Part shown: one piece after another, positions 24,072 through 45,644 of the stretch
Position numbering within the stretch: the first letter of the stretch is position 1
How the letters are laid out: the number at the start of each line of letters is the position of its first letter
Made by a program: the position numbers and the translations under genes
Origin: an uncultured Bradyrhizobium sp.
GTDB taxonomy: Bacteria; Pseudomonadota; Alphaproteobacteria; Rhizobiales; Xanthobacteraceae
DNA length: 64,000 nt
Reading direction: 5' to 3'
Assembly: GCF_936943645.1 (NCBI RefSeq)
Contig: NZ_CAKZJO010000082.1
Coordinates: 62,001 to 126,000, forward strand
Notes under the pieces: model-generated
What the model was told of the DNA's origin: nothing
Database searches by the model: none
The model's input: the letters and a program-made list of their open reading frames with translations, nothing else

Positions 24072-24377
24072 CTGGGTTCCCCGATGAAGGCCGATTGCGT
24101 CGCGTGACGCGCAGGGGTTTCCTGCGCGGCAGCCCGCAAAGGCGTAGGTGTTTCTGGTTGCTACGTTGCGATCTCGCTGCCCCGATGGCGCGGAAGTCAT
24201 TTCCGGTTCGATATGGCGAGCCTTAGCTGCCGGGAACCTGCGTTATCCACGCAAGGGCGGCATCGACGGATAGAAGCGTCGAGAAGTCTATGCGAAGCCG
24301 ACGATCATTATCCGCACCCGGTACCAGGCGCCCGGTTAGGAAAATCCGGGAGAGGGAAGTTGCGGTCTTACGCGGCA
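24072..24377. other. gap upstream of the capsid gene
   Basis: No gene is convincing in these 306 bases between the effector-like gene and the capsid gene. It may hold the leader of the capsid mRNA or a cassette border. Confidence 0.4.
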
Positions 24378-27068: not shown

Positions 27069-27911
27069 TCACCTTGACTCCCAGTGCGACGACAATTGGC
27101 GAATGGCAGGCCAGTCGCCGAAGCGATCGTTGAAACTGGCGGACCGACCTTCCGACAAGGGATCATCTTCCCTGACGAATGGCACCGCGGGTAAGCCATT
27201 GGTTGTCTGCGAGGTGCCTGCCGTTCCCCGGCTCTGGCGCAGATAGTCGGCAATCATTCCCGGCAATCCTCCGGGCTGCGGTGCCGCCGCCGATTGAGCG
27301 GCGGCAGGGCCACCCGGCAGAGAATTCCAGGCGCCGTAGCGATCGGCAACAACACCGTCGCGACTTGGAAAGCCCAATCCACGCAGCGGAGCCGAACTGA
27401 CCGGCCCCCCGGCTGCGGCCGCCGCCTGAACCAGATGAGGGACACTGGTGTCAAATCTGGCAGGGTCAATCGTGGTGCCGCCGTTTACGGCAACGCCAAG
27501 AGGTCCCCCATTTCGATGTTTTTCTCCCAAGGCCGGGGTCGCATCTTCATTTTTAATGACCGAGTAATGCAAATGAGGTCCGGTGCTGCGGGCACCAGTG
27601 CTTCCGACGTTGCCTATGATATCTCCGGGCCAGACGCGCTGGCCGGGCTTCGGCATCGAGCTGCCCTCCTGCATATGAGCGTAGAGGCTATAGCCCGCTT
27701 CATTCCTCACGATGACGGTGTTGCCAAAGTTGTCGTTGAAACCAGAATAAACGACTGTGCCAGGTGTCGCCGCCGGAATCGGAGTGCCCGGGCGCGCCGC
27801 GAAATCCTGTCCTGAGTGGAATTTTCCGAGTTCGCCCGTGATCGGATCTTTTCGCCTGCCATAGGCCGAGGTGCGGCGAAACGGCGGCCCGGGATTGTAG
27901 GGATCACTCAT
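27069..27911 (-). CDS. class B effector: M23 metallopeptidase with conserved tail
   Basis: The 280-residue protein has an N-terminal M23 (lysostaphin-type) endopeptidase: H32 and D36 in KFHSGQDF, H79 in YAHM, and H113/H115 in PHLHYSV give the zinc site, so it should cut peptidoglycan cross-links. After residue 160 comes an Ala/Gly/Pro-rich linker, then GGLPGMIADYLRQSRG, LPAVPFV and FNDRFGDW, the tail elements shared by the other class B effectors. There is no signal peptide. The ATG overlaps the stop of the secreted 27908 gene by four bases, tying effector to candidate immunity. Confidence 0.8.
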   Translation of the reverse strand: MSDPYNPGPPFRRTSAYGRRKDPITGELGKFHSGQDFAARPGTPIPAATPGTVVYSGFNDNFGNTVIVRNEAGYSLYAHMQEGSSMPKPGQRVWPGDIIGNVGSTGARSTGPHLHYSVIKNEDATPALGEKHRNGGPLGVAVNGGTTIDPARFDTSVPHLVQAAAAAGGPVSSAPLRGLGFPSRDGVVADRYGAWNSLPGGPAAAQSAAAPQPGGLPGMIADYLRQSRGTAGTSQTTNGLPAVPFVREDDPLSEGRSASFNDRFGDWPAIRQLSSHWESR

Positions 27912-30038: not shown

Positions 30039-30814
30039 CTACCTGCTTGGGAAGGCTGTGTTGAGCCGTGGCACTCCGTCTTTTCCGATCGTCCAGCCCG
30101 TGATGACCGGGATCGTGCGGCCGTTGGCGCCAGTGACGTGGATGGGCTGGTTAAACACCGTCCCGTGCTGCGTGATAGCTTTTTGGACTGCCTGAGATTT
30201 ATCGAAGACCAATTGCTTTGCAAGGTCTTCTGTATTTTCGCGACCGAAGCCGAGCGCCTGTTCGAACCATCTTGCCTTCGGACCACCACTAATGTGCTCC
30301 GGACTAAGCAGATAGCGATTCAGCTTATCGCGCACGCTGGCGGCGGACTCTTCGGCTGGACTCGCCGCCACCGGTATCGACCTGCTTGCCAGCGTCCGGC
30401 CCGCTGCAAAGCTGTCCGTAACCGCGGGCGCGACCGTTTCCGCGGCGCACCAGGCACCACAGCGTTGATGGTGCCTCGCAATAGACCCTTACCGAATAAC
30501 GAACCATCGCCATTACTTGCCGACCCGGGGGCGGAGATCGCGTCGTCTAAGCCACTTCCTGCATGGCCGCCGGCAACGTCGCCACTCGATCCAACAGGGA
30601 CGTTTCCCGTCGCCGCTCCATTGACGGCGGGCCGACTGGCGCCCGCTGCAGACTTTTGCGGCTGGGCTTGCGGCGCTGACTGCGTTTGCGCTTGTTCAAA
30701 CCGCGCCTGCGGGAACGTGCCGCTATCACTGAACGGATCGTGTTCGACCGGAACGAGGGTGATGTTTTCAAAGTCCGGCTGATGCTCGACCGGCACCAGA
30801 GAATAATCAGACAT
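30039..30814 (-). pseudogene. class A effector with DUF6883-like toxin domain, frameshifted
   Basis: The first part starts at 30814 with the leader SDYSLVPVEHQPDFEN then LVPVEHDPF and a Gln/Ala-rich arm up to GTINAVVPGA. The correct continuation (AETVAPAVTDSFAAG, then NRYLLSPEHISGGPKARWFE, the DUF6883-like domain) is in another frame, so one net indel occurred near 30440-30455. Without it the product would be about 258 residues. The original frame instead runs into an Arg-rich nonsense end. The domain end follows immediately before the DUF4926 immunity gene. Internal initiation at 30371 could still give the toxin domain alone. Confidence 0.75.
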
Positions 30815-31065
30815 GATGAACGACCTGCAGAACTTTTCCGGCGGGGGGCATCAGGCAGACATTGATGGCCGCCTCTCGTCTTGCGTGCGCCCGCCGGATA
30901 CGCCCGCTGCGCCTTCCCCATTTCGATCGCCGCCTTCAGATGGGTCTCCAGCACCGTCATCTTGGCGTCGAGCGCAGCCTTGATCTTGGCGAGCTCGATC
31001 TCCCCTTGCGTCTTGACCTGGAGATGGATCGCGTCGGCCTGCGCCCGGCGGCTCTCCGGCAAGGT
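30814..31065 (-). repeat. decayed copy of the portal 3' end (module 1 border)
   Basis: The minus strand reads QADAIHLQVKTQGEIELAKI then LDAKMTVLETHLKAAIEMGK and ending GARKTRGGH, matching the authentic portal C-terminus at 34968-35230 with scattered changes and a frame loss near the end. It runs directly into the start of the class A leader at 30814, exactly as the authentic portal end runs into the leader at 34975. Confidence 0.85.
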
Positions 31066-31921: not shown

Positions 31922-32974
31922 CTACGGAAGCGTACCTTTGATTTCGTCCGGTGAGATGTAGTGCGGAACCAGGTACTCGCTTTCGCTATATAGGCTGTAT
32001 GGGTTTGGAGTTGCTCGGCCCGGCGCCAATTGCAGCCGGTAGGTCGTGTCACCGTGTATTCGCGCAACGTTAGGATCGGTGGTTACGGCGATATATGGAG
32101 ACGGCGGATTGCGGCTGTCAAGCGCGTGCTTCGTCATCAAGTCGTGCTGGTCCCCTTCTGCCAAGACCGCTTCGGAGTAGGCTTGGCCTCCCGCTCGTGC
32201 CGCATGCGACCGGAATTCCGTGAGGCCGGCTTGATCGCCTCTATAGAAAGTTTGTGGCGCATTCTCTGCCGCTTGTCCAAACCTCGCGCTCGCTTCTTCT
32301 GCGGCGGGCGGCAGAGTCTGCGCGGCGCGTGCTCCCGTTCCTAACCTGGCTGCACCGAGCGGACCGAGCACGCCGAGTGCGCCGCCGGCGAATCGGAGAG
32401 GCACCTCCCAAGGAGTCCCCTCGCCAAGCTGGCCTCCGGCTTCGCTCCCCAGGCCGCCCAGCACAGCCGCTCCGACTTTGAGAGGCACGCCTCCAGGCGC
32501 TACATAGGAAGCGGGATTGCCGAGAAATTCCCCGACTGATGCACCGAATTGGCCCGCCCGGCCTTCCGGCCTGTACATCGGCCCCGTGACTTCCTTCTCG
32601 AGAATCTGCATTCCCTGTTCTGGAGTCGGCGCGTCGACGTCTTGCCCCATCTCGGCCTGTGTGGCGCGTCCCAATGCGCTCGCCGCGCTGTTGAAGCCAG
32701 AGACGACCCCGCGAGGGATGGACTTGAAGAAGTCACCGGCCCCTGCCGCGAGGGTAGATCCGGTGGAGCCTGTTGTTGCCACGCCAGGTATCGGTGCGCT
32801 GGATCTGCCTGCTCCCATCGCAGACTGTTGAGTCTGCGCCTGTTGCGCCTGCGCTTGCAGGCTTTGCGCTTGCTGGGGCTCATCCTCAGGGAATGGGTTG
32901 TGGTCGACTGGAACGAGAGTGGCATTCTCGAAGTCCGGCTGATGCTCGACCGGCACCAGAGAATAATCAGCCAT
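31922..32974 (-). CDS. class A effector with ADP-ribosyltransferase-like toxin domain
   Basis: The 350-residue protein has the leader ADYSLVPVEHQPDFEN and LVPVDHNPFPEDEPQQAQ, then a Gln-rich arm. A hydrophobic Gly-rich middle (GQFGASVGEFLGNPASYVAP, VGAAVLGGLGSEAGGQLGEG) resembles phage internal/ejected proteins. The C-terminal domain shows TFYRGDQAGLTEF (Arg motif), SPYIAVTTDPNVARIHG (ST-like strand) and YSESEYLVPHYISP (E-x-E-like), the R-S-E layout of ADP-ribosyltransferase toxins. It would modify a cytosolic target of the recipient. Candidate immunity genes follow. Confidence 0.75.
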   Translation of the reverse strand: MADYSLVPVEHQPDFENATLVPVDHNPFPEDEPQQAQSLQAQAQQAQTQQSAMGAGRSSAPIPGVATTGSTGSTLAAGAGDFFKSIPRGVVSGFNSAASALGRATQAEMGQDVDAPTPEQGMQILEKEVTGPMYRPEGRAGQFGASVGEFLGNPASYVAPGGVPLKVGAAVLGGLGSEAGGQLGEGTPWEVPLRFAGGALGVLGPLGAARLGTGARAAQTLPPAAEEASARFGQAAENAPQTFYRGDQAGLTEFRSHAARAGGQAYSEAVLAEGDQHDLMTKHALDSRNPPSPYIAVTTDPNVARIHGDTTYRLQLAPGRATPNPYSLYSESEYLVPHYISPDEIKGTLP

Positions 32975-33312
32975 GATGAACGACCAGGAGATATTTGCCG
33001 GGACGGCCCGAGTCCGGCAGATAGTGGTGGCCGTCCCTCGCCTTGCGTGCGCCTGGCGGATATGACCGCTGCACCTTGCCTGCTTCGATCGCCGCCTTCA
33101 GATGCGTCTCCAGCACCGACATCTTGGCATCGAGGGCGGCCTTGATCTTGGCGAGCTAGATCTCTCCTTGGGTCTTGACCTGGAGATGGATCGCGTCGTT
33201 CTGCTGCTGGATCTGCGCCTAATGCGCGGCGGTCGCGGCGTCGACCTGCACTCGCGCCAGCACGGCCTGTAATTTTGGATCGGGCGACAGTCGATGCGGC
33301 AGGGAGCCGTAT
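32974..33312 (-). repeat. more decayed copy of the portal 3' end (module 2 border)
   Basis: About 340 bases match the authentic portal end at 34974-35300, including the ACGACCAG and GATATTTGCCGGGACGG elements and the helix coding for the QTQGEIELAKIK-type segment. In-frame stops and several indels show it is not coding. It runs into the ART effector leader at 32974. Confidence 0.85.
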
Positions 33313-33409
33313 TAGCAAACGTTCGGTTCTTGTGCCCTCATCCTGGATGCATCCAGCCCCACAATCACGATCTTACGAGAAGACGCGTAACCGCCCGGCT
33401 TTATTGCCC

Positions 33410-33865
33410 CTACAACCCTTCAGGTAGTTCAGTGAGAGAATCGATAAACTGCTTCAGTGTTGGGGCGAGAAACACAATGTATCGATCAGGGTCCTCATAA
33501 TCTTCATGAGAAATGAACATGATATTTCCGAAAGACTCTGGCCTCACACTATAAAGAAACTTGTCCCCAGAGGGATCGTCCGCGAACGGTATGAGCCCCT
33601 GCGGAAAGTCCGGCGTTTGATCCACCATCATGACATAGGTGTCTTCGAAGGTAGTTCCGATGGGATCTTCTACGTTCATAGGCAGGAATGTTTCGACGTC
33701 ATATGCGTCTCCATCCTTGGGAAAAAATTGAGGGCGGGGCGTGCCGCCGTTGTGCCGAAGGTAGTGTTCCTTGAGATCCTGCGGCAAGCGAATACCGAGG
33801 CGATTCTCCACGCGCTTGATATCCAGTTCGGAAAGCGGTGGAGCAGTACGCTCAAAGACAACCAT
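33410..33865 (-). CDS. SUKH (SMI1/KNR4) family immunity protein
   Basis: The 151-residue protein has the SUKH fold signatures ELDIKRVENRLGIRLPQDLK then EHYLRHNGGTPRPQFF near residue 35, the mid FPQGLIPFADDPSGDKFLYS and the end VFLAPTLKQFIDSL. SUKH proteins are broad immunity proteins against diverse nuclease and other toxins. It lies in the class A module of the DUF4951-like effector, downstream of it and of the 87-residue gene, and could be the protector or a leftover of an older module. Confidence 0.85.
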   Translation of the reverse strand: MVVFERTAPPLSELDIKRVENRLGIRLPQDLKEHYLRHNGGTPRPQFFPKDGDAYDVETFLPMNVEDPIGTTFEDTYVMMVDQTPDFPQGLIPFADDPSGDKFLYSVRPESFGNIMFISHEDYEDPDRYIVFLAPTLKQFIDSLTELPEGL

Positions 33866-33902: not shown

Positions 33903-34166
33903 TTAGGGAGATGGCCTTAGAAGCCATGGCAAATTCAGATCCTGACCATTCAAAGCAAGCATCGCTCGACACCCGGTCCAAACCCACACGGTAAGGAAGT
34001 TGGGGCTCGGTACCACTTCCAGCACACCTTCCCTGTCGCAGAGGACCGTCAGCAACAGTTGAGAATCCGGCGAAAGAACAACCTCCTCAGCCCAAGGTTC
34101 CACGATCACCGTCAACGGCCCGGGGTTGTGGTTGATTACGACGTATTTTACGGTCGTATCTGTCAT
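33903..34166 (-). CDS. small protein downstream of the DUF4951 effector, candidate immunity
   Basis: The 87-residue beta-rich protein (MTDTTVKYVVINHNPGPLTV, EVVLSPDSQLLLTVLC, NFLTVWVWTGCRAML) starts four bases inside the end of the effector gene, so it is translationally coupled to it. The position makes it the first immunity candidate. No family name. Confidence 0.6.
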   Translation of the reverse strand: MTDTTVKYVVINHNPGPLTVIVEPWAEEVVLSPDSQLLLTVLCDREGVLEVVPSPNFLTVWVWTGCRAMLALNGQDLNLPWLLRPSP

Positions 34167-34975
34167 TGGAAGTTCCTCAAGATTTTCGCCAGCAACGCTG
34201 CGCGATGGACTGCCGACAGGTTGGATGGATTGTCACGCGCCACACCCTCATAGATTTTTTGGAAGGCCGCAATAGATCGTGCGGTAATGCCGGCCGATTT
34301 GAGTCTCGATATTATTTCGGCAGTCGCTTCGGTGGAAGCCGCGCGTGATGCTTCCAGCCCTTGTTCGAAACCGGCAAGTCGCCCAAATTGCGCTCGCTTT
34401 ATTCCTTCGGGCAAGGTGGCTTCCGCTTCGGCAATGGCTTGTCTGGCGGCGCTGCCCGCAGCAGCTCTACCTGCCGCAGAGACTGTTGACCCGGCCAGCC
34501 CGTCAGCAACCGCGGAGCCTCCCACGCCAAACAGACCGAGCGCCTCGGCACCCGCAATCGCCAGCGGCGGAAGCAGCAGCGAACCGACCCCAAACGCTCC
34601 CTCGATCTTTGCAGCTGTCGGATTATTCCGCACAAGATCTGTCACCCCTTCCGATTGAGCGAGTTCGGGAGCGGCTAGCTGATTAAAGAACTTGACGAAG
34701 GGCGAACCCGAACCACCTCCGACCGCAGAATCACCGGAAACAGCCGACTTTGGCTGGGCGGACAGCACGGGCTGCGGCTGGCTTTGCGGTTGAGCCTGTG
34801 TCAACTGGGGCTGCACTCTCTGCCCCGATTGCGCCAGCGCCGGCTCACTCTGCGCTTGCGGGCTTTGCGCCTGCTGGGGCTCATCCTCAGGGAATGGGTT
34901 GTGGTCGACTGGAACGAGAGAGGCATTCTCGAAGTCCGGCTGATGCTCGACCGGCACCAGAGAATAATCAGCCAT
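34163..34975 (-). CDS. class A effector with DUF4951-like toxin domain
   Basis: The 270-residue protein has the leader ADYSLVPVEHQPDFEN / LVPVDHNPFPEDEPQQAQ, a Gln/Pro-rich arm, a hydrophobic Ala/Gly segment (FGVGSLLLPPLAIAGAEALG) and a C-terminal domain FGRLAGFEQGLEASRA, SAGITARSIAAFQKIYEGVA, NPSNLSAVHRAALL. That end resembles DUF4951, a polymorphic-toxin domain (recalled, not searched). It overlaps the authentic portal gene end by eight bases, so it is the module closest to the portal and probably the youngest. Confidence 0.7.
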   Translation of the reverse strand: MADYSLVPVEHQPDFENASLVPVDHNPFPEDEPQQAQSPQAQSEPALAQSGQRVQPQLTQAQPQSQPQPVLSAQPKSAVSGDSAVGGGSGSPFVKFFNQLAAPELAQSEGVTDLVRNNPTAAKIEGAFGVGSLLLPPLAIAGAEALGLFGVGGSAVADGLAGSTVSAAGRAAAGSAARQAIAEAEATLPEGIKRAQFGRLAGFEQGLEASRAASTEATAEIISRLKSAGITARSIAAFQKIYEGVARDNPSNLSAVHRAALLAKILRNFQ

Positions 34976-36629
34976 GATGAACGACCAGCAGATATTTGCC
35001 GGGACGGTTAGAATCCGACACGTAGTGGTGGCCGTCCCTCGCCTTGCGGGCGCCCGGCGGATATGACCGCTGCACCTTCCCCCCTTCGATCGCCGCCTTC
35101 AGATGCGTCTCCAGCACCGTCATCTTGGCGTCGAGCGTGGCCTTGATCTTGGCCAGCTCGATCTCCCCTTGCGTCTTGACCTGGAGATGGATCGCGTCCG
35201 CTTGCGCCTTCTCGCGTTCGATCTGCACCCGGTGGGCGGCGGCAAGCTGGTCGGCCTGAACGCGCGCCTGCAGCGCCAGCAATTTCGGATCGGGCGGCGG
35301 CTGCGGTGGCGTCGGCGGCGGATGCAACAGCTGCCCGGTCTGCGGATTGACGGCCATGGGATCGCAAAAGAACTGGTCCGGGTTGCGATGCCCCATGATC
35401 CGCGTCAGCTCGGCCGCGGTGTTGTAGAGCTGACGGTCGCCGACCAGGTTGAGCTTGCCGCCGGCGAGCAGCTCCTTCTGCACGTTGGCGATCGCCATGG
35501 TCTGGGCGAATTGCTGGGCCTTGCCGCCGGCGCCGAGGCCGACATTAATGGTCATGTCCTCGCGCGTCTTCCAGTTGCGCGGATTGACGGCGACCCAGGC
35601 ATTGCGCAGCCGCACCGTCTCCTCGCGCTGGCCATGCTTGCGGATGGTGCCGTGCAGCAGCGCGAAGATATCGCGCACGCCTTCGGCCATGACACGCGCG
35701 ATCAGCTTGATGCGCATCTGCGAGGCAGAGAACACCTGCGCGACCGCGGTCGCCGATTGGTTCTGCAACGCGTTGGCGTCGATGCCCTGCGCCTGCTTGG
35801 CGAGGCCGGTGCGGATCTCGAGCTCGGCGTCGAGATATTGCAGCATCGGATAGATCGACGTGGTGATATCAGGCACCACCTGCCAGTTCAGCCCGCCTGC
35901 CGTCTTGGTGCGGACCACTCCGCCCGGCCGCGACACCAGCAGGTCGTCGAGCGTATTCGGCCCGGCGTTCTGCTCGGCGACCTCGACGCGCGGATTGTTG
36001 TGCAGATAGAGATTGTCCAGCGCGCCGCGCTTCAGCGCTGTCTTCTCGCGCTGCAACGGCATCACGAGATCGGCGATCGAGCGGCCGAAGAAGCGATGGG
36101 TCACCGGCACCGGCGTGGTCGCCGCGAACGGCATCTCGTCGAACGGCGTGATGCAGTCCTTGCCGTCCTTGCGCAGGATCTCGGCCTGGTCGCCGCCCGT
36201 GATGACCTGGTAGAGGCAGGGACGGCCCGAGCCCTCGTAGTCCATGCGAACATAGTGCTCGGTGATGCGCACCAGCCGCGCCGCAGCGTTGGCGCTGCCG
36301 CCGCCTGATGTCGCGGACAGATGCTCCTCCACCGTGTCGCGCGCCAGCGTCTCGATCTCGGTCATGCCGGTATGCGGCAGCAGGGCCCTGATCTGGCCGG
36401 CCTCGAAACCTTCCGCGATCAGCTGCGCCTCGGTCTTGGTGACGACCTCGTGGAAGCAATAGTTGCAGTCGCGGATGCTGCGTGCACCGCGCTCGATGCC
36501 GAATTCTTCGGGCGGCACACCCATCACCCGCGCCTGCGCGAGTTTGCGCGTGGTGACGATGGTGACGTCATGCGTGACGAGAGAGCCCATCGGCGCGGGT
36601 TGCGCCGGGGCTAGCAAGGGAACGGGCAT
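34968..36629 (-). CDS. portal protein, C-terminal part (split gene)
   Basis: The 553-residue frame starts MPVPLLAPAQPAPMGSLVTH and continues DVTIVTTRKLAQARVMGVPP, GIERGARSIRDCNYC, then FFGRSIADLVMPLQREKTAL and EIRTGLAKQAQGIDANALQN, the central and C-terminal parts of a P22/SU10-type portal. A long coiled coil (residues 460-530) ends it. The first about 190 residues of the portal are encoded separately at 40788-41372, so a block of about 4.2 kb interrupts the gene. Whether the two halves assemble is unknown. Confidence 0.8.
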   Translation of the reverse strand: MPVPLLAPAQPAPMGSLVTHDVTIVTTRKLAQARVMGVPPEEFGIERGARSIRDCNYCFHEVVTKTEAQLIAEGFEAGQIRALLPHTGMTEIETLARDTVEEHLSATSGGGSANAAARLVRITEHYVRMDYEGSGRPCLYQVITGGDQAEILRKDGKDCITPFDEMPFAATTPVPVTHRFFGRSIADLVMPLQREKTALKRGALDNLYLHNNPRVEVAEQNAGPNTLDDLLVSRPGGVVRTKTAGGLNWQVVPDITTSIYPMLQYLDAELEIRTGLAKQAQGIDANALQNQSATAVAQVFSASQMRIKLIARVMAEGVRDIFALLHGTIRKHGQREETVRLRNAWVAVNPRNWKTREDMTINVGLGAGGKAQQFAQTMAIANVQKELLAGGKLNLVGDRQLYNTAAELTRIMGHRNPDQFFCDPMAVNPQTGQLLHPPPTPPQPPPDPKLLALQARVQADQLAAAHRVQIEREKAQADAIHLQVKTQGEIELAKIKATLDAKMTVLETHLKAAIEGGKVQRSYPPGARKARDGHHYVSDSNRPGKYLLVVHHG

Positions 36630-36686
36630 GTGTGATTGAACTCTCGGTTCTGCGCAAAGGCTCGCCGCTCGATGCGGCGGGCCGGG

Positions 36687-37746
36687 TTAGTAACCGTTGT
36701 TGCGCATATATTCCTGGATCATGCCGAGCAGGCCGCCTGCCGGCACCCGATCGGGACTCGATGGATCGATGGCTGTAACCGATGGGCCGGCTAGGACAGC
36801 GGCAGTATCCCGCACAGGTCGAGACGCGTCCTTCCGCGGCGAGGCCAAGGCCCATTGATCCAACGCGCGTTTGGGGGCGGAGGCAAACAGCGCCTCGAGT
36901 GGAAACCGCTCCGTTGGAAGCGACGTCGAGGTCGACCGATCGCCCGCGTTGCCGCCGCGTGCAGCAGGTCGTGGCGACAGCGCTGACGAACTCGTATCTG
37001 GCTGCGCAGTCCCATCAATGAACGAGGCAAGCCTACGAAACGAATCCGGCGAGACGTCCCGGAATGGCGCAGGAGCAACGCTGTCCCACCGATCGCCGAT
37101 GCCGTTGCTGTCACCGATCGGCCCGACCCCCCTGAGTACAGCGTCCGGTTGCATGTCCGGAAACATACGCGGCGCACCGAATGAAGGCGTCCGCAAGCTC
37201 GGGGCGTTACGCCCCGATGCGGTTGGTGCGCCACCCGGCCCGCCCACGGCATCGGAGCGTATTCCAATCTGATGTAATTCACCGCCAGGCGCACTCTTTC
37301 CCGGATCTGTTGGAGCAAACGGATCTGCTGACCCCGGCGTCATGGGAACATGAGCACTATTGATCGAATCCGACGTGGCCGGGGGCGGAAGCGTAATATT
37401 GTCTGTGATGCCCAAGTCGCCTGCGACTGCCGCATGCCGGAGCCGCTTGAGAGTTAGGTCGATCGATTCAATTACGGATTTTAGGACGCCACTCTGATCG
37501 TCAACGGATTGCTGCGCGCTGAGAATCGAATTCTTGGAATTTGTTAGGTCTCGAACAGTACTGTCATAACCAGGCTCGTCACTGAGCGGCTTTCGAATCC
37601 CCTCGACATTAAAGGATCCCGACCCGTTCAGATAATGATCAATAACGTCGTTCGCTTGACCGATAATCTCCGCTCTATCGGCTTCGGTGATTGTTGTGGC
37701 CGAATGACCTGGAGGCGGGCAACGGGCGCCTTTCGATGGTCGCCAT
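36687..37746 (-). pseudogene. class B effector frame with conserved tail, start lost or shifted
   Basis: The minus-strand frame is open for about 360 codons from the stop at 37770 to 36687 but has no ATG or GTG at its beginning. The only near start, an ATG at 37746 (MATIER), is in another frame, so a shift near 37730 is likely. The encoded chain has GHSATTITEADRAEIIGQAN and SILSAQQSVDDQSGVLKSVI, then a Pro/Ser-rich linker, and ends VPAGGLLGMIQEYMRNNGY, the class B tail. A TTG at 37415 could give a truncated product. N-terminal activity unknown. Confidence 0.6.
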
Positions 37747-37769
37747 ACTGTACTTAATCCGTCTGTGTT

Positions 37770-38267
37770 TCAACGATTTCGATGAAGTCGTATTCTAATA
37801 TAGAGAGTGCCCGCGTACTCATTCTGAATAAACAGAGCGCCCTGGGCCGGCCGCCCGCGATAGAAAGGAACTATTGATAGCGGCTTGGCCGGATCTATGT
37901 TCACGAAATCCGCGGCACCGACGAAATAGCAGCAACTGAGTTCGCTGCCGTATAAGTGAATCGTGGCACTCCGAGTCTCGTAAGGAAGCACGATTATCGT
38001 CAGCCACAATCCGAACGCCTCGATGTCCGCGCTACATACTTGATCAAATCGACACCTAACTGAGCCTGCGTCCTTGGCGCCTCGAACCTCAGCGCCAAAA
38101 TCAACATCATAATCGTCTGCCCATGACCGACCGGTCGAGGCAAGCAGGCAAAAAAGGAACAAGATCAAAGTACCCAACAAAGGGACGTATCGCGCAGAAG
38201 CTCCGACCTCGGAGCGCTTGTCACGGGCGAGCTCCGCCTTGACGATACGATATTGACCTTCCGCCAT
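37770..38267 (-). CDS. membrane-anchored or secreted protein, candidate immunity
   Basis: The 165-residue protein has a cytosolic basic start, a hydrophobic segment YVPLLGTLILFLFCLLASTG and a mature part with Cys pairs (VRCRFDQVCSAD, ELSCCYFVGAADFV) and a beta-rich end (GALFIQNEYAGTLYIRIRLH). It precedes the class B frame 36687-37746 in the same direction, the position of periplasmic immunity genes in this element. No family recognised. Confidence 0.5.
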   Translation of the reverse strand: MAEGQYRIVKAELARDKRSEVGASARYVPLLGTLILFLFCLLASTGRSWADDYDVDFGAEVRGAKDAGSVRCRFDQVCSADIEAFGLWLTIIVLPYETRSATIHLYGSELSCCYFVGAADFVNIDPAKPLSIVPFYRGRPAQGALFIQNEYAGTLYIRIRLHRNR

Positions 38268-38270
38268 ACT

Positions 38271-38724
38271 TCACTCCCATTCATCGGGAACGTAACGTTT
38301 ATGAACTTGCACGACGGCGTCATGCGGTTTTAGACAGGAGAGGGGCACGTCAACATGATAGACTTTTTGTGCTCTGTAGTCGGGGTCATCGCGCGGGACA
38401 TATCGCTGGTCGTCTCGGACCCAGCATTCGCCCGAATAGCTGCAGGCCTTGCTGGGTGCCGGGGCGCACTGCAAACCAAGAGCTTCTGCATCGTCGCGAG
38501 AGATGTCCCTGGCAGACGTCTGCTCGATGATGAACGTTTCGTCAATTGCTTCAGACCATCGACGTCATGATTGGAGTTGCGGCCAATGAATTTCGCCAGT
38601 TGGCCTTCGCCCGATCCCGTAGGATCGATGTCGACGCGAGGCCACGGCCAGACCAGGAGCATCCGGATATGATGAAAGCAATGGCCAGCAGCGAGAGAAC
38701 GTTGAGTATCGGAAACTTCGGCAT
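38271..38724 (-). pseudogene. lipoprotein gene, frameshifted
   Basis: The Met at 38724 starts PKFPILNVLSLLAIAFIISG then CSW, a clear lipoprotein signal with lipobox Cys. The frame stops at SLAATPIMTSMV. The coherent remainder (SEAIDETFIIEQTSARDISR, ACSYSGECWVRDDQRYVPRD, VVQVHKRYVPDEWE) is in another frame, so one indel lies near 38560. Together they would give a periplasm-facing lipoprotein of about 150 residues, another probable cassette immunity gene. Confidence 0.6.
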
Positions 38725-38956
38725 TCCAAGTGCTTCTCCGGGCAAATACTTGATCTGCTCATCCTTCGGGAATCGCGTGTAGCTGCCTCGATCGGCCGCG
38801 ATGCAAAGCGGCCAACAACAGCTAAACGTCTTTCGCCGTATGAGCGCGCGCGCACTTCACCACTATCTCTAATTTAGATAGAACAAAGCCAGAACTTAGT
38901 CAAACGAGACCTTGGGCTGCCGAACCGCCACAGTCCGTCCGCGGATAACGCATCGC
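38725..38956. other. intergenic stretch inside the portal insertion
   Basis: No supported gene. It contains an A/T-rich part near 38870-38900 that could hold the promoter of the lipoprotein gene. Confidence 0.35.
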
Positions 38957-39051
38957 CAATGCCCATCAGCCGCGCCTGCGCGAACTTGCGCGAGGTGACG
39001 ACGGAGATCCCGTCGGCGCTGACGCGCCGGAGCTAGCAAGGGAATGGGCAT
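38957..39051 (-). repeat. decayed fragment of the portal interior (start of the C-terminal part)
   Basis: On the minus strand it begins PIPLLAPA and carries the block coding for TSRKFAQARLMG in a shifted frame, matching PVPLLAPA and TTRKLAQARVMG at the start of 34968-36629. It follows a class B tail end (39091) just as the authentic portal part follows the class B tail end at 36687, so cassette plus portal border has been duplicated. Confidence 0.8.
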
Positions 39052-39090
39052 GCGCGATACGCGCGGCGCTGAATTGCATCAAACCGCCAA

Positions 39091-39756
39091 CTAGTAAGCG
39101 TTGTTGCGCGTGTATTCCCGGATCATGCCGAGCAGTCCGCCGGGCTGCTGCTCTTCGGGCGCATATTGGCCATCTCTCAAGCCGGCAAGCCCGGTCGAAG
39201 CTCTCCAGTCGCCCATCCCGCTCCCGAGTGAATTCCGATCCTCCATGCCCAAATTTCTCACCGGGGCAGCGCTGTCGGGGCCGATCGATCCCATGCGGGA
39301 TGTCAGCGTCCGGACAAGTGGTGATGCTTCATCGATCGGCCCCATTGCAGGAGGCGCGAAGAACATTCTCAAGCGCTCGGCAAGCTGTTCTGGGGTCCAC
39401 GTGTATGTGGCCGCCAGGCCGGGGCGCGCCGGTCCGATCTCGAGAGAGGACACCTTGCTCTTCGACGGCTGTGGAATCCCATTCGCGTCCGGAATGGATA
39501 CGTTCAAGGTAGGGACGAATGGAAAGAGATTTCCACTCGCGCCATATCCGAGAGTGTCATCCGACTTGATTCCGGCCGTCAGGAACGACAACCCAAGCCC
39601 CCCTCCTCCCAAACCCAAGCCACCTGTCACCGTGACCGGCGGAGACGTCGGCGAACCCGGATTCCAGTAATATGAGCCACCGATCCCAAAAGGACCAATC
39701 GGCAGAGAGAGTGAGACTCCATCGGCTCGAAGATTCCCATTCTCGTTGACGGACAT
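39091..39756 (-). CDS. putative class B effector with Gly-rich N-terminal domain
   Basis: The 221-residue protein starts MSVNENGNLRADGVSLSLPI and is Gly-rich with alternating hydrophobic strands up to residue 75 (GPFGIGGSYYWNPG, GGLGLGGGGLGLSFLTAGIK). YTWTPEQLAERLRMFFAPPA follows, then a linker and the tail QQPGGLLGMIREYTRNNAY. The amphipathic Gly-rich start would suit a membrane-active toxin, but that is a guess. Its partner may be the broken lipoprotein downstream or may have been lost. Confidence 0.55.
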   Translation of the reverse strand: MSVNENGNLRADGVSLSLPIGPFGIGGSYYWNPGSPTSPPVTVTGGLGLGGGGLGLSFLTAGIKSDDTLGYGASGNLFPFVPTLNVSIPDANGIPQPSKSKVSSLEIGPARPGLAATYTWTPEQLAERLRMFFAPPAMGPIDEASPLVRTLTSRMGSIGPDSAAPVRNLGMEDRNSLGSGMGDWRASTGLAGLRDGQYAPEEQQPGGLLGMIREYTRNNAY

Positions 39757-39942
39757 TGCGATGATTACCCCAATTGCGATTTCACAAAGATTGATCTGGC
39801 ACGCTTGCCGAAGCTTACTCAGGCGCCGTTCGACGGTCAGTTGCGATGATCTGACGGCGACGACGCTCGCTTGCTCTCATTGCAAGTTGTCACGCGGATG
39901 AGCTAAGATTGCAGAAAACGTCTGATCATTGGGCGGTGGAAC

Positions 39943-40248
39943 ATGAATGGGCTGCAAATCGGCTTCACATTGATCTGGGTCGCCGGCCTTGCCTTTCTAT
40001 TTGCCCGCGCCTTGAATTACAGCCGCCTCGTCCTCAACAATCTCGCACCCGGTGAGACTTGCTGGGAGCCCTCCGATTTTCGGCTGTTCTTCAGCTTCAG
40101 GCGCTTTCGCTTGTTCGGCAACTACGTCGAACCGACCCATCTGACAGACCTCGGCCGGGAATATCAGAAACGTGTCCGCCAGACCGACGTCATCGCCTTT
40201 TTCTGGACGCTCGGCGGCCTCGTGGCTCTGGCGATCTTCTTTTCGTGA
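39943..40248 (+). CDS. two-span membrane protein of host type
   Basis: The 101-residue plus-strand protein has an N-terminal span (IGFTLIWVAGLAFLFARALN), a soluble middle with FRLFFSFRRFRLFGNYVEPT and a C-terminal span (TDVIAFFWTLGGLVALAIFF). It is followed by the same terminator-plus-repeat arrangement found behind host genes on the right side of the window. It therefore looks like chromosomal DNA caught inside the phage-like block. Function unknown. Confidence 0.65.
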   Translation: MNGLQIGFTLIWVAGLAFLFARALNYSRLVLNNLAPGETCWEPSDFRLFFSFRRFRLFGNYVEPTHLTDLGREYQKRVRQTDVIAFFWTLGGLVALAIFFS

Positions 40249-40317
40249 AGAGATGCAGTTCGCGCAGCGGTCAAGAAGCGGTGGAAGAAGCTCACCCCGA
40301 TCGGCCATCGGAATGAA

Positions 40318-40347
40318 AAAACCCGCAGCGGATTTTCCGCGCGGGTT
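40318..40347 (+). terminator. terminator of the 101-residue membrane protein gene
   Basis: AAAAACCCGC...GCGGGTT hairpin 70 bases after the stop, followed by the conserved intergenic repeat. It resembles the hairpins at 47.6, 48.6 and 49.3 kb. Confidence 0.6.
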
Positions 40348-40380
40348 GATCTTAACTCTTTCGATGATGCCACTTTAGAG

Positions 40381-40401
40381 GTGTTTTGCCCGACGCGTCA
40401 A
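40381..40401. repeat. intergenic repeat copy 1 (GTGTTTTGCCCGACG family)
   Basis: Core GTGTTTTGCCCGACGCGTCA preceded by TCGATGATGCCACT. It lies behind a hairpin, as at the six close copies to the right, and is the only copy inside the phage-like block. Confidence 0.85.
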
Positions 40402-40416
40402 GCCGATTTCGGATTT

Positions 40417-40656
40417 TTAGATCTGACCCACGACTTGGCCCGGCGGCGAATAGCCGTTATTGCGCATGTCGTCCTGGATCATGCCGAGCAGTCCGCCGGC
40501 CGTGCCGCTTGTCGCGGCATTGCTTGTATCGCCTCGCATCGACGATGCCATGGACAAGCCGGGCTCATTTGCGAACACGCCGATCGGCCGGCTGGCCTGC
40601 AACGGCTGGGGCCCATTGAGCAGTCCGCGCAATTCTGCTCGTAGATCCTCGAACAT
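40417..40656 (-). CDS. short class B tail frame, effector remnant
   Basis: The 79-residue frame from the ATG at 40656 (MFEDLRAELRGLLNGPQP) ends TAGGLLGMIQDDMRNNGYSP and about ten further residues. The class B tail is clear but there is no room for an N-terminal toxin domain. An overlapping frame codes for a hydrophobic stretch (MVFGVLFLAAFVYSVFYAIK). It looks like the leftover end of a cassette inserted at the portal break. Confidence 0.45.
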   Translation of the reverse strand: MFEDLRAELRGLLNGPQPLQASRPIGVFANEPGLSMASSMRGDTSNAATSGTAGGLLGMIQDDMRNNGYSPPGQVVGQI

Positions 40657-40787
40657 TTGATGGCGTAAAACACGCTGTAAACAAAGGCCGCCAAGAACAA
40701 CACGCCGAAGACCATCGCATCCGCCCTCCCCAAGGCCGCCCTCCAAGGGATGTCTGGCCGGCCGGCCACAGCGATGAATGGCTAACG

Positions 40788-41372
40788 TCAAACGACCTCG
40801 CGCAAAGCCTGCAGAGTATCTCCCTGATCTGTCCCCTCGTGCACCGTGTGCGCGACGATCTTCATCGCGCCGTTCGATTCCGCGACGTCCTGGGCCAGCA
40901 GCGCGAACTGGTCGTCTGTGAGGTCGTAATAGGTCTCGCGGCTCTCCTCCTCCCGCTCCTCCCACCAGACCTTGACGATGCCGGCCTTCGACAGCAGCGC
41001 GTCCTTGATGAAGGAATACAGCACCATGAAGCCGCCGTTCTGCTGCATGAAGACGTGATTGACGTAGTCCGTCTCCTGCTGCGCAGCGGCGACATCCTCC
41101 GGCCCCACCGGCTCGAAGCGCACGACCTCGTCGGAGCCGGCAAAGATGTCCATCAGCTGCGGCATCAGACCTTCGACGGTGTCGGCAACGTCGGTCGACA
41201 CCGCGCGCGAGCGGCCGTCCTGCGCCGGCATGTCCTTGCGCATGTCACCGAGATAATAGTCCATCGCATCCGCCCGCTCCTCGGCGAGCCGCGCTGCCGA
41301 CATCGCGGCAAGCGCATTGGCCTTCTCGGAGGCGAGCATCGCCTTCACTTCGGAAATCGACATCATTGTCAT
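40788..41372 (-). CDS. portal protein, N-terminal part (split gene)
   Basis: From the ATG at 41372 (MTMMSISEVKAMLASEKANA) the 194-residue frame reads RADAMDYYLGDMRKDMPAQD, STDVADTVEGLMPQLMDIFA, FEPVGPEDVAAAQQETDYVN and DALLSKAGIVKVWWEE, the classic N-terminal region of P22/SU10-type portals. It ends TVHEGTDQGDTLQALREVV at the break; the remainder is at 34968-36629. The last about 15 residues are probably not ancestral. Its start lies just downstream of the transglycosylase effector stop. Confidence 0.8.
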   Translation of the reverse strand: MTMMSISEVKAMLASEKANALAAMSAARLAEERADAMDYYLGDMRKDMPAQDGRSRAVSTDVADTVEGLMPQLMDIFAGSDEVVRFEPVGPEDVAAAQQETDYVNHVFMQQNGGFMVLYSFIKDALLSKAGIVKVWWEEREEESRETYYDLTDDQFALLAQDVAESNGAMKIVAHTVHEGTDQGDTLQALREVV

Positions 41373-41407
41373 GAGATACCTTTGGTCAAAACTCATACAC
41401 CGCAGCT

Positions 41408-42412
41408 TCACCGGCGCGACAGATACGGCACCGGCGGAGCACCCGTCGTAAACACATTCGCCTCGTTCGAATCATCGCGCCGGGTCAACCGGCGGATGTC
41501 ACTGCGACGGATAGCGGGCGCATCGACGGCGTTCTGTTCTTCGAGCGCGTTCGGAGCCAGCGCGCTGGCAGCCGGAGACCACGGCGCATCGTATCGATCT
41601 CCGATGGCCGAATAGCTTGCACTTGCCGGGCCCAAGACCCCACCGAGGCCGCTCCATTTGCCGAAGCGATCGGAGAGATCCCAGGGCGCGGCACCAGGCG
41701 CTGGAAGTGAATTGTCGAGCACCTGTTGGGCCCGTGTCGTTCCGGCCAGGAAGGGGATCGGCGCAGTGGTCGGGGCTCCGGCAATGCGACTGGCCGCATC
41801 CGGCGACAACATGTTGGGCGGAGCGGGATGTTGCGGCCAGCTCGTGGCGCCGAACGCCGGCTCTACCGCCTGCGTTTGCGCGAGCCAAGGAATGGGTTGG
41901 CTGCCGGCGTCCCACGGCGCGTGGCGGGACGCTGCGGTATGTCGAGACGCTGCGGCGTGCTCCATCTTCTTGTTTGCCCAGGAGATAACCCAGCTGGCTG
42001 TCTTGCCACGAAGGAAGGGATTGGCCTTGATGGCGTTGTCGTCGAGAATCGACTCCACCGGCGTATTCGGATCCGCCTTCATCAATTTGACGCCGCCACC
42101 CGGGCCGGCAAAGTGCATGAGATAGGTCGATGTCGGCGTGACGGGGACGCCGGCCCGGCGAAGCCTTGCTTGGTTCTCCGCCGCATAACTGGCGGTCATC
42201 TCTTTCGAAAGGTCGGCATCTTTGCGAAGCTCAAGGATCTCTGCGTCCGATTTGCCTCGCGCCAGCTCGGGCTTGAGGCGCTTGATCATCTCGAGCCAGG
42301 TCCCGTTGATGAACTGCCCGAGCCCGAGCGCGCTCGATGTCTTGTTCGGCTGGTTCGCCTTCTTGAGATTGCCGCTGCTCTCGGCCGAAATGATCTTGTC
42401 TAGAATGTCCAT
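41408..42412 (-). CDS. class B effector: lytic transglycosylase with conserved tail
   Basis: From the ATG at 42412 (GAAGG ribosome site) the 334-residue protein begins MDILDKIISAESSGNLKKAN, with the Glu of AESSG as likely catalytic acid. SALGLGQFINGTWLEMI and YLMHFAGPGGGVKLMKAD follow, a lysozyme-like transglycosylase fold that cleaves glycan strands. A long Ala/Pro-rich linker contains DLSDRFGKWSG. The end reads IRRLTRRDDSNEANVFTTGA then PPVPYL, the shared tail. There is no signal peptide. The Ivy-like inhibitor gene lies upstream, giving an effector/immunity pair. Confidence 0.75.
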   Translation of the reverse strand: MDILDKIISAESSGNLKKANQPNKTSSALGLGQFINGTWLEMIKRLKPELARGKSDAEILELRKDADLSKEMTASYAAENQARLRRAGVPVTPTSTYLMHFAGPGGGVKLMKADPNTPVESILDDNAIKANPFLRGKTASWVISWANKKMEHAAASRHTAASRHAPWDAGSQPIPWLAQTQAVEPAFGATSWPQHPAPPNMLSPDAASRIAGAPTTAPIPFLAGTTRAQQVLDNSLPAPGAAPWDLSDRFGKWSGLGGVLGPASASYSAIGDRYDAPWSPAASALAPNALEEQNAVDAPAIRRSDIRRLTRRDDSNEANVFTTGAPPVPYLSRR

Positions 42413-42428
42413 ATTGCCTTCCACAAAC

Positions 42429-42607: not shown

Positions 42608-43417
42608 TTACTTGCCACTCGGAGATCCCCACTTGCGTTCATCGGGATTGAGAGCCTCTCTCATCACGGCAAGCTGCGCGTCGGTGGCGGCGCCGAGATA
42701 GGACATGACACCTTCGTGGACAAGCACACCCCACGCCTGGGTGCCGCTCGGCGCAAACATGAGGGCCAAGTGCGTGCGACTGCAATTGTATTCCTTCGCG
42801 CAGACCGTGAATACTTCGTATTTGACTCCGTGTATGTCGACCAGCTCGGCGGAACTGCTGCTATAAGCAACATCGTTCCTGGCGAGAACATCCCGGGCCC
42901 AGCCCGGCAGCTTGCCGGCATGCTCGATCAGATTCTTTGACGCTTGCGCATAGGCAGGCCTCTTGAGCACGTCGAACAAATACGGGGTTGTCACCTTTGG
43001 CGGCAATTCGGGGACAGCGAGCTGCTTTCTCAGCACCGCCTGCTGCGCATCGGTCGGATTTCCAAGGAAGGACACAACCCCTTTTTCGCGCAGGCCGGCC
43101 CACGCCTGCGCGCCATTCGGCGCAAACAGGAGGACAATTGTGGTGTCGTCGCAATTCGGCTGAGGCACGCACATGTGGAATTGCTCGTGGGTAATGCCGG
43201 CAATGTTCTCGGTGGTGCGCACGCCACTGATGTAAGGCCCGTTTTTCTTCAGGATTTCCCTGGTCCAGCCAGGAGCGTTACCGAGCAGGGTCATCAGGCT
43301 CTGAACGTAGGCAGGCTTTTGCAAAACCCCGGACAGATAGCCGATGGCCATTGCCGGTGAACAGGCAATGCACAATGTAACCAGACCGATGGCTGTCCAA
43401 CGAACTTGTCGTCTCAT
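42608..43417 (-). CDS. two-domain Ivy-like lysozyme inhibitor, probable periplasmic immunity
   Basis: From the ATG at 43417 (GGGGG ribosome site) the 269-residue protein has a signal peptide (IGLVTLCIACSPAMA) and two tandem domains with matching order: YLSGVLQKPAYVQSL...CVPQPNC...GAQAWAGLREKGVVSFLG and YLFDVLKRPAYAQAS...CAKEYNC...GTQAWGVLVHEGVMSYLG. This is the Ivy (inhibitor of vertebrate lysozyme) layout with the C-x5-C loop that plugs lysozyme active sites. Placed directly upstream of the transglycosylase effector, it should protect the producer's peptidoglycan. Confidence 0.8.
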   Translation of the reverse strand: MRRQVRWTAIGLVTLCIACSPAMAIGYLSGVLQKPAYVQSLMTLLGNAPGWTREILKKNGPYISGVRTTENIAGITHEQFHMCVPQPNCDDTTIVLLFAPNGAQAWAGLREKGVVSFLGNPTDAQQAVLRKQLAVPELPPKVTTPYLFDVLKRPAYAQASKNLIEHAGKLPGWARDVLARNDVAYSSSSAELVDIHGVKYEVFTVCAKEYNCSRTHLALMFAPSGTQAWGVLVHEGVMSYLGAATDAQLAVMREALNPDERKWGSPSGK

Positions 43418-43738
43418 GGGTCCCCCTTCGGATGAACCAGTCATCTCACTACCACAGGTCGCGCCACGGCGAACAGATTGTGGCTATGAACAATTAGCCA
43501 AATAGCAGCAACGTCGGAGCCATCCGGATCAAACTGCGGACATCGGCGAGCCGCACGGTGTCTTCGACGTAAACCTGCTGCGGGTTCGTCTCCTTGATAA
43601 AGGGAAGCGCCGCAGCATTCACCCCTATTCGCGCCAAGTAATTCCATACGTGTCATTTCCAAAATAAAGCCGAAGCACGACGCAGCCTCCTGTCGGTGGA
43701 CAGGGCCCTTGCGTCAACCTTCGAACGCGGAGCCAGTA

Positions 43739-44357: not shown

Positions 44358-45644
44358 TCACATCCATCCCCGCTCGGCATACCGGATCGGCCGGTTGAAC
44401 GCGGCGACCCTGCCCGGTTGCTCGTAGCAGATCGCCATCAGTCCCAGCGCGTCCGCAGCGTGGCTCGACCAGTCGTGCTCGGGACCGAGACCGATGTTGC
44501 GCGTCTCGTCCTTGCGCTCGTGATAGAAGCCGAGCGCTTCGCGGCCGGCCTCCGTCGTGTCGGTGTTGAACCAGAGCTGCGGGCCGAGCCGCCGCAGCGC
44601 CTCGATCCGCATCATGGCCGCGCCCGGCCCCTGGTTCTTCACCGGCGGCTCGACCTTGAAGCCGGCCTCGCGCAGATGATCCTCATAGCGCTTGCCGGTG
44701 ACGTTGTTGGCGGCCATGCCATCGTGCGGAAGATAGAGCACGGCGTTGTCATAGCCGCGCGAGCGCAGCCAGTTGACGTGAAACGCCAGCACCTGGCCGA
44801 CGCTTTCGTAATAATCCAGGATGCGAATTTCGCTGCCGACCCATTGCACGATCCACATCGTGAAAGCATCCGCCGCAGCGCCGGCGCCGCCGATGTCGAT
44901 GAAGGCGCGCAGCGGCAGGAGAGGATCGGCCGAGACTTTTCCGATCCGTCCTCCGGCACGCGCCTCCGACAGCAGCGAGGCAAAGTAGGCGCCCTCGAAG
45001 GCGCGGGCGTACTCGCCTTCCCAGATGTGATCGTAGCGCTCGGGGTAGAGCTTTTGATCCAGGAGCCGCTCCTCCCCGAGCACATCGGGAAACCACGGAT
45101 TGTCGCGCCAGTTGGCTTTCACCACCACCGCGCCGTCCGGCTGGCGCCCGCGCAGAAAATCGTCGATCGCATCGCTCTTGCGGCGCGGATTCCAGCTGGC
45201 CCAGAGCTCGGAATCCTTGGCGCGGATCGTCGGCCGCAGCAGCGCGAGGCTGCGTGCGCTTAAGGATTGCGCCTCGTCGATCCAGGCGATGCGAAATCCC
45301 TCCAGGGATTTGATCGAGTCCGCCGTGTGATCCTGAAGCCCGCGGAAGATGATGAGCCCGTCGCCGGGCGTCTCGATCTTGTCGCTGAAAAGCCTGAAGC
45401 CGTGGCCGAGCCGAAGGCTCGCGATCTTGCCCTCGATCAGCCGCTTGGAAGACTGCGCCAGCGAACGCTGCGCCTCGCGAATGCAGACCGCGAGCGTGCC
45501 GCGCTCGGCCTGGCAGGTCTCGACCAGGAGCTCGCCGAAGAAATGCGACTTGCCCGAGCCACGTCCGCCGTAAACGCCCTTGTAGCGCGCAGGCTTCAGC
45601 AGCGGCTCGAAGATCTTCGCCGTCGGAATTTTCAGGATGGACAA
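44358..45644 (-). CDS. phage terminase large subunit
   Basis: The 428-residue protein has the packaging ATPase Walker A GGRGSGKS at residues 26-33 and Walker B FRIAWIDEAQSL with D123/E124. The nuclease domain follows with AFIDIGGAGAAADAFTMWIV and later acidic residues. WEGEYARAFEGAYFASLL is typical of the PBSX-type terminases. It is intact, so DNA packaging could still work. It lies upstream of the portal block on the same strand. Confidence 0.9.
   Translation of the reverse strand: MSILKIPTAKIFEPLLKPARYKGVYGGRGSGKSHFFGELLVETCQAERGTLAVCIREAQRSLAQSSKRLIEGKIASLRLGHGFRLFSDKIETPGDGLIIFRGLQDHTADSIKSLEGFRIAWIDEAQSLSARSLALLRPTIRAKDSELWASWNPRRKSDAIDDFLRGRQPDGAVVVKANWRDNPWFPDVLGEERLLDQKLYPERYDHIWEGEYARAFEGAYFASLLSEARAGGRIGKVSADPLLPLRAFIDIGGAGAAADAFTMWIVQWVGSEIRILDYYESVGQVLAFHVNWLRSRGYDNAVLYLPHDGMAANNVTGKRYEDHLREAGFKVEPPVKNQGPGAAMMRIEALRRLGPQLWFNTDTTEAGREALGFYHERKDETRNIGLGPEHDWSSHAADALGLMAICYEQPGRVAAFNRPIRYAERGWM

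What the first reader, a model, noticed from the sequence alone, without database searches (positions are those of the whole stretch)
38957..39051. Portal fragment repeated behind a class B tail end
The fragment lies 40 bases beyond the tail end at 39091, and the authentic portal C-part lies 58 bases beyond the tail end at 36687. The repeated unit is thus tail end plus portal start, the mirror image of the class A junction (portal end plus leader). Cassettes have entered on both sides of the same portal segment, using its sequence as homology.
Basis: seen in the sequence. Interest (0 to 1): 0.75.

Follow-up and report, generated by a model that had tools for sequence, protein, structure and literature searches.

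The report
Scar of stacked phage toxin cassettes
A short broken copy of the start of a phage portal gene marks where a new gene cassette, probably for an antibacterial effector, was pushed in next to that gene; similar scars in related prophages suggest that these phages swap and stack such cassettes around a core virion gene.

Summary
38961-39051 is a decayed copy of the first ~110 bases of the portal C-part (36520-36629), 39 bases behind a class B tail stop. In relative L066 the homologue of gene 39091-39756 sits directly before the functional portal C-part, and the window aligns with it in one 848-bp block: gene, spacer, 110 bp of portal. The fragment is thus the former portal start of that cassette, cut off when a further cassette with its own portal start arrived. 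Such scars recur: 90 fragments of terL, portal-N or portal-C in 103 loci, all on the genes' strand; 17 of 17 start fragments lie upstream and 51 of 52 end fragments downstream of the intact gene. A class B tail precedes 8 of 10 portal-C start fragments (control 90 of 2000). Breakpoints vary, which fits recombination anchored on one side by portal homology. Class A genes include polymorphic-toxin domains; most class B genes lack a known domain. The portal is two genes in 89 of 92 loci. Displacement arrays are known from rhs and T6SS loci; a portal gene as anchor on both sides is a new variant. Virion delivery is inferred.

The parts
44358..45644 (-). terminase large subunit (terL)
   Evidence: Pfam Terminase_3 E 8.9e-23
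42608..43444 (-). Ivy-domain protein (lysozyme-inhibitor family), candidate immunity protein
   Evidence: Pfam Ivy E 3e-11; immunity role inferred
41408..42424 (-). transglycosylase-like cargo gene directly before portal-N (no Pfam hit; label recalled from its sequence)
   Evidence: pieces of it match between portal-N and portal-C in L034, L035, L038 and L055
40788..41411 (-). portal gene, N-part
   Evidence: SU10_portal profile 3-163 of 593; portal chain 7sxk residues 27-166
40417..40656 (-). remnant of an older class B gene with the third tail copy (40448-40515)
   Evidence: longer homologues L033 4284-5039, L039 6831-7580 and L067
39943..40248 (+). small hydrophobic protein divergent from class B gene B2, candidate membrane immunity protein
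   Evidence: a homologue lies 60-208 nt away on the opposite strand at 16 of 32 B2-family rows; L078 and L079 among them are 100% matches to the window and some others are duplicate contigs
39091..39756 (-). class B gene B2: beta domain, low-confidence linker, C-terminal helix at the tail GGLLGMIREYTRNNAY
   Evidence: second-look match to Vap proteins Z 10.5
38961..39051 (-). the finding: displaced start of the portal C-part (codons 1-37, about 19 nt lost inside, frame broken)
38230..38903 (-). left part of the next cassette, decayed
   Evidence: 84% to L039 8204-8900
37770..38267 (-). ORF that begins like an effector (MAEGQYRIVK, as L039 8863; L044 587 is similar) and continues as a protein with a signal-peptide-like stretch; looks hybrid
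   Evidence: by eye
36687..37415 (-). class B gene B1 with tail, directly before the functional portal C-part; start uncertain, 5' part possibly lost
   Evidence: frame open to 37769, first usual start codon at 37415
34968..36629 (-). portal gene, C-part (intact copy)
   Evidence: SU10_portal profile 171-591 of 593, E 4e-122
34163..34975 (-). class A gene 1: leader MADYSLVPV.. plus DUF4951
33410..33865 (-). SMI1/KNR4 (SUKH) immunity-type protein
   Evidence: Pfam E 3.8e-23
32970..33327 (-). displaced portal C-part end (codons from about 427) before the second leader
31922..32974 (-). class A gene 2: leader plus a C-terminus without Pfam hit
30812..31047 (-). second displaced portal C-part end (codons from about 462)
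30320..30814 (-). class A gene 3: leader, short ORF

Best explanation
The fragment is a recombination scar in a prophage's effector-cassette array. This podovirus-type prophage has its portal in two genes, and cassettes accumulate between them and behind the second. At some time the B2 cassette (39091-39756 with its divergent partner 39943-40248) stood directly before the portal C-part, as its homologue still does in L066. A later piece of DNA from a related phage, carrying another cassette followed by its own portal-C start, recombined with the resident portal through portal homology on one side and joined non-homologously about 110 bases into the old portal gene on the other. This kept one intact portal C-part, added the new cassette next to it and left the old start behind as a dead fragment. 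On the other side of the same gene the same process leaves portal-end fragments before leader genes. The constant end of each effector gene (C-terminal tail before the portal, N-terminal leader behind it) faces the portal, so that portal and tag form one anchor for exchange. Shown: the repeats, collinearity with L066 and L063, strand and end bias, variable breakpoints, purifying selection on both portal halves. Inferred: the recombination route and its order (B1 after B2), that class B genes are antibacterial effectors, and that tags load them into virions.
For: One 848-bp block (80.5%) joins B2, spacer and fragment to the B2 homologue, spacer and functional portal start (+110) in L066; a 2000-bp block (81.4%) does the same for L036 against L063 (+259). 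L071 shows a recent case: 710 bp repeated at 95% (about 99% over the last ~530 bp), ending 163 bp into the portal, with N-terminal parts of the two class B genes that look unrelated. 90 of 90 fragments lie on the genes' strand, 17 of 17 start fragments upstream, 51 of 52 end fragments downstream. A tail precedes 8 of 10 portal-C start fragments, control 90 of 2000. Fragment ends differ: portal +110, +259, +163 and about +196. The window's fragment matches the L036 junction better than its own (140 against 81.5 bits), and the L033 end fragment is 91.9% to L034 but 83.8% to its own portal. Identity among 10 loci before the portal is at shuffled level further out (0.51-0.59, control 0.54), 0.81 at the tail and 0.71 in the spacer. 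Tail motif in 38 of 3454 forward and 0 of 3914 reverse ORFs; leaders 57 of 57 downstream of portal-C, none on the reverse strand. dN/dS medians 0.087 portal-N, 0.156 portal-C, 0.132 terL.
Against: Several fragments are closest to their own genome's gene: start fragments of L042, L067, L071, end fragments of L038, L043, L060, L068, L070, and portal-N fragments of L042, L049, L052; local duplication would give that too. One portal-N end fragment (L036, 1018-1284) lies upstream of the intact gene. L088 and L151 have no tail before their start fragment. The order on the B side is not proven: B2 plus fragment inserted to the left of a resident B1 would look alike. At most 5 of 37 class B proteins have a Pfam match. 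Of 63 cassette-bearing loci, 14 show no recognisable tail between the portal halves and 36 have one ending within 200 nt of portal-C. With the wider tail pattern of that of 7914 reverse ORFs match as well. Scars in related loci (for example L033 and L080) are not independent events.
Confidence: 0.85

Rival explanations
1. Local tandem duplication within one genome copied tail, spacer and portal start, and other genes later filled the gap.
For: The L071 fragment is 98.8% identical to its own junction, and several fragments match their own genome's gene best.
Against: In the window, L033 and L036 the fragments match other genomes' portals better than their own (for the L033 start fragment only slightly, 93.3 against 88.7 bits), and the window and L036 cassettes are collinear with L066 and L063 through the junction. 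The N-terminal parts of the neighbouring class B genes look unrelated (by eye).
Confidence: 0.1
2. Site-specific recombination or transposition inserts cassettes at a fixed target.
For: Cassettes repeatedly sit at the same gene junction.
Against: Fragment ends differ from case to case. No inverted repeats of 40 nt or more in the window; at 20 nt or more one 78% pair in 36000-41500, away from the fragment's ends.
Confidence: 0.03
3. The fragment is kept for a function, for example as a translational leader or as a silent recombination site.
For: Tag plus portal start would be a ready homology block (inference).
Against: Its frame is broken and it has a deletion; in 9 of 10 start fragments an ORF was found and it runs 28-141 aa instead of about 553, in L088 none was found; 93 of 103 loci have no portal-C start fragment that was detected.
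Confidence: 0.04

Closest known systems
Rhs C-terminal displacement arrays (Jackson et al. 2009, PMC2935791; passages seen)
   Same: Old toxin tips are shunted away from an intact core gene and keep a fragment of the core sequence; homologous recombination in the core proposed.
   Different: There the constant part belongs to the toxin gene itself; here the anchor is a phage portal gene with cassettes on both sides, and class B genes carry their constant part at the C-terminus.
V. cholerae T6SS effector/immunity arrays by sequential displacement (Kirchberger et al. 2017, PMC5361080; passages seen)
   Same: Homology-facilitated illegitimate recombination proposed, with one conserved stretch as anchor; older modules kept in arrays.
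   Different: Secretion-system clusters with orphan immunity genes; here a prophage packaging module with scars of core genes at several junctions.
MuF polymorphic toxins of temperate phages (BMC Biol. 2017, PMC5576092; passages seen)
   Same: Polymorphic toxins encoded right behind the portal gene of temperate phages.
   Different: No MuF family among the Pfam matches of the 23 leader proteins; the constant part is a short leader with two SLVPV-type repeats, and a second class sits before the portal.
Bradyrhizobium phage ppBeUSDA76-2 (OP596614.1)
   Same: Same portal family (portal-C 70.3% identical), portal in two genes that overlap as TGATG.
   Different: No cassette between the portal halves; no match to the tail or leader pattern on the forward strand of the 41,069 bases fetched.

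Membership tests
Displacement array of polymorphic toxins (rhs/CDI/T6SS kind) | Variable toxin parts joined to a constant part | tested here: met
   Class A: constant leader and, among 23 proteins, Pfam matches to WHH (4), Colicin-DNase (4), Tox-ART-HYD1, DUF6883, DUF4951, NucA/NucB, CHAP and TruB-C_2 (1 each; the last E 0.0038). Class B: constant tail and variable N-termini, mostly without known domain, so met for class A and only in form for class B.
Displacement array of polymorphic toxins (rhs/CDI/T6SS kind) | Displaced modules keep fragments of the constant or anchor sequence | tested here: met
   90 fragments in two panels
Displacement array of polymorphic toxins (rhs/CDI/T6SS kind) | Cognate immunity genes | tested here: inconclusive
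   SUKH, Ivy and a divergent small hydrophobic protein are in place; cognate action untested
Displacement array of polymorphic toxins (rhs/CDI/T6SS kind) | Toxicity and delivery | not testable with these tools
   needs experiment
MuF polymorphic toxins | MuF domain | tested here: not met
   no MuF family among Pfam matches of 23 class A proteins at E 0.01
MuF polymorphic toxins | Gene located just behind the portal gene | tested here: met
   57 of 57 leader matches lie downstream of portal-C; the first of an array overlaps the portal end in most loci listed
SU10_portal family | Match to the family profile over both halves | tested here: met
   profile 3-163 and 171-591 of 593; solved portal chains 7sxk and 7z44 matched by both halves

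The most novel reading that the evidence does not exclude
Bradyrhizobium podophages are carriers of polymorphic effectors: two tag systems, a C-terminal GGLLGMIQDYMRNN helix and an N-terminal SLVPVDHDPF leader, load many kinds of antibacterial proteins into the virion, and the portal gene, lastingly split in two, is the exchange anchor from which cassettes are gained on both sides. The phage would inject effectors together with its DNA and protect its lysogens with the stacked immunity genes.
Probability: 0.3. Interest if true: 0.85.

Novelty: new variant of a known kind. Interest (0 to 1): 0.62.

Why it matters
Displacement arrays explain how toxin repertoires grow in rhs and T6SS loci. This case moves the process into the packaging module of a temperate phage, with an essential virion gene as anchor, and keeps a fossil record of the events as fragments of core genes. 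It makes two questions testable: whether phage heads carry tagged effectors, and why the effector tags sit at the end that faces the portal. It also shows a portal encoded as two genes, both under purifying selection, which matters for portal assembly.

Tried and rejected
Chance match: rejected (E 2.3e-14; collinearity). Assembly error: rejected, similar scars occur in other genomes, among them L071 on a single 7.7-Mb contig. Transposon or integrase: no supporting repeats. MuF membership: not met. Pfam and NCBIfam gave nothing for B2. Foldseek gave no match to the B2 model below E 0.001; the best was R. equi VapB at 0.0096. The second look at Foldseek's own candidates gave four Vap entries at Z 10.5, 9.7, 9.2 and 9.1, next row 5.4, from a model of mean pLDDT 69 whose first 120 residues are at about 85-91 apart from the first ten; no function follows from it. 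Papers, in the held open-access library only: no paper holds 'split portal' with 'portal protein' and 'phage', none 'ppBeUSDA76', none the six terms; some searches were seen as listings. That nearer end fragments on the A side are usually longer than farther ones I judged by eye and did not test.

Counts and what was dropped. Genome panel: 41 loci (window, L033-L065 without L058, L066-L072, L074). Viral panel: 62 of 80 loci, after dropping 18 whose portal-C is at least 98.5% identical to one already held. Fragments counted are over 40 bases at E up to 1e-6; 'start' means beginning before codon 60 of portal-C or 30 of portal-N and terL, 'end' means reaching past codon 470, 180 or 415; 21 are internal. 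From 49 raw fragments of the genome panel I left out 4 that are pieces of a broken gene itself (L065 three, L033 terL one). L073, L075, L076 and L077 were fetched but left out, because their contig lengths equal those of L057, L065, L059 and L052. L078 and L079 are near-copies of the window. One of the 38 tail hits (L069, 159 aa) looks like chance and was left out of the 37-member alignment. L157 was left out of the tree counts because its portal-N assignment is doubtful.

Full report
Observation. The window lies in a prophage; its genome's relatives with this portal are of the genus Bradyrhizobium (43 of 265 genomes searched in the genus, own genome included; named records). On the minus strand the order is terL, Ivy-domain gene, transglycosylase-like gene, portal N-part, remnant class B tail, B2, the fragment, a decayed cassette start, B1, portal C-part, class A genes. 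A major head protein (23109-24200), a scaffold-like and several tail-type proteins follow. The fragment 38961-39051 repeats portal-C codons 1-37 (counterpart 36520-36629) with an internal loss of about 19 nt, and the tail before it is repeated too.

What it is. Relatives settle the origin. In L066 (portal-C 95% identical) the B2 homologue ends 59 nt before the functional portal C-part, and the window's B2, spacer and fragment align with that stretch in one block of 848 bp up to portal position +110. L036 against L063 gives a second pair: 2000 bp in one block up to +259. L071 gives a recent case: 710 bp at 95%, ending at +163. So the fragment is what remains of a former portal start.

Generality. 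With all intact terL, portal-N and portal-C genes as queries I found 45 fragments in the 41 genome loci, after leaving out four pieces of broken genes, and 45 in the 62 viral-contig loci. All 90 lie on the strand of the genes. Of fragments with a gene start 17 of 17 lie upstream of the intact gene, of those with a gene end 51 of 52 lie downstream, 21 are internal. Related loci share scars, so these are not 90 events. Portal-C start fragments occur in 10 of 103 loci; a tail motif lies within 400 nt before 8 of them, against 90 of 2000 random positions.

The portal. Portal-N and portal-C match successive parts of one portal family (that chain 7sxk is from phage PaP3 and 7z44 from SU10 is recalled). 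Of 92 loci with both halves in view 3 have one open frame (L045, L061, L074), 17 overlap or lie within 60 nt, 9 have 60-400 nt and 63 at least 400 nt between them; L157 among the 17 is doubtful. In phage ppBeUSDA76-2 the halves overlap as TGATG. B. elkanii USDA 76 is reported to release a siphophage and a podophage, and the TerL of its prophage ppUSDA76Be-2, which I take to be this record, groups with headful-packaging terminases (PMC10127595, passages). On a FastTree tree of portal-C the cassette state needs 12 changes, at least 8 forced by starred branches, and the deepest rows lack cassettes (two long branches meet at the base). Both halves are under purifying selection among cassette-bearing loci (median dN/dS 0.087 in 1249 pairs and 0.156 in 1846; terL 0.132 in 816).

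The cassettes. Class B genes end in a common tail: 38 of 3454 forward ORFs and 0 of 3914 reverse ORFs, 33 of the 38 between the portal halves. Known domains are rare: DUF6973 in 3 and peptidase M23 in 2 of 37; three single NCBIfam matches, one to a peptidoglycan metallopeptidase. B2 is predicted as a beta domain (residues 1-120), a low-confidence linker and a C-terminal helix at the tail; the domain resembles Vap proteins of Rhodococcus equi (Z 10.5, rmsd 2.7, 104 residues; Foldseek E 0.0096 at best). That Vap proteins act at membranes is recalled. A divergent small hydrophobic gene stands 60-208 nt from 16 of 32 B2-family rows, some of them duplicate contigs. Class A genes start with a double SLVPV-type leader; several carry known toxin domains, and SUKH proteins lie nearby.

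Mechanism. Strand, end bias, variable fragment ends, collinearity and the intact portal are accounted for by one homologous crossover in the portal combined with a non-homologous joint (homology-facilitated illegitimate recombination, as proposed for V. cholerae T6SS arrays, PMC5361080), or by insertion of a circle through one crossover, as proposed for rhs (PMC2935791). I cannot separate the two. Fragments that match another genome's portal better than their own (window, L033, L036) argue for DNA from related phages; others match their own best. L039 carries the same decayed cassette start as the window (84%), joined inside its B2 remnant without a portal fragment: a later deletion or a separate event.

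Why the tag faces the portal. Identity before the portal rises from shuffled level to 0.81 at the tail (-110 to -60), 0.71 in the spacer and 0.90 in the portal start (10 loci, 45 pairs). Tail plus portal start, and portal end plus leader, each form one continuous anchor. That this layout is selected for exchange is my inference.

Limits. Toxicity, immunity and virion loading were not shown. The label transglycosylase-like for 41408-42424 is recalled resemblance.

Noticed in passing
window 19113-19186 and 17544-17617: The start of the structural gene 16136-17608 is repeated in decayed form 1.5 kb upstream on the same strand (77%; translation), with a 202-aa ORF without Pfam hit and a DUF6968 gene (E 1.1e-11) between: the same kind of scar at a junction of the virion genes away from the portal.
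   Followed up: partly
L050 9759-9944: A 61-aa ORF between the portal halves resembles the Acb2/Tad1 hairpin domain (E 1.8e-4, 22.1 bits, below the 27-bit cut-off), a hint of an anti-defence gene in the same slot.
   Followed up: partly
window 40364-40403 and six further copies between 47654 and 60521: A seven-copy intergenic repeat, preceded by a hairpin-like stretch, has one copy inside the cassette array and six to the right of terL.
   Followed up: no
window 27069-27911: An M23 peptidase gene away from the portal carries a tag-like motif GGLPGMIADYLRQSR inside.
   Followed up: no
L045 9410-11548: Portal in one open frame inside the clade of split portals, perhaps fused again.
   Followed up: no
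L070 (turned so that portal-C is on the + strand) 7678-7809: A terL end fragment lies directly before portal-N, as if a terL-end/portal-N block had been brought in.
   Followed up: no
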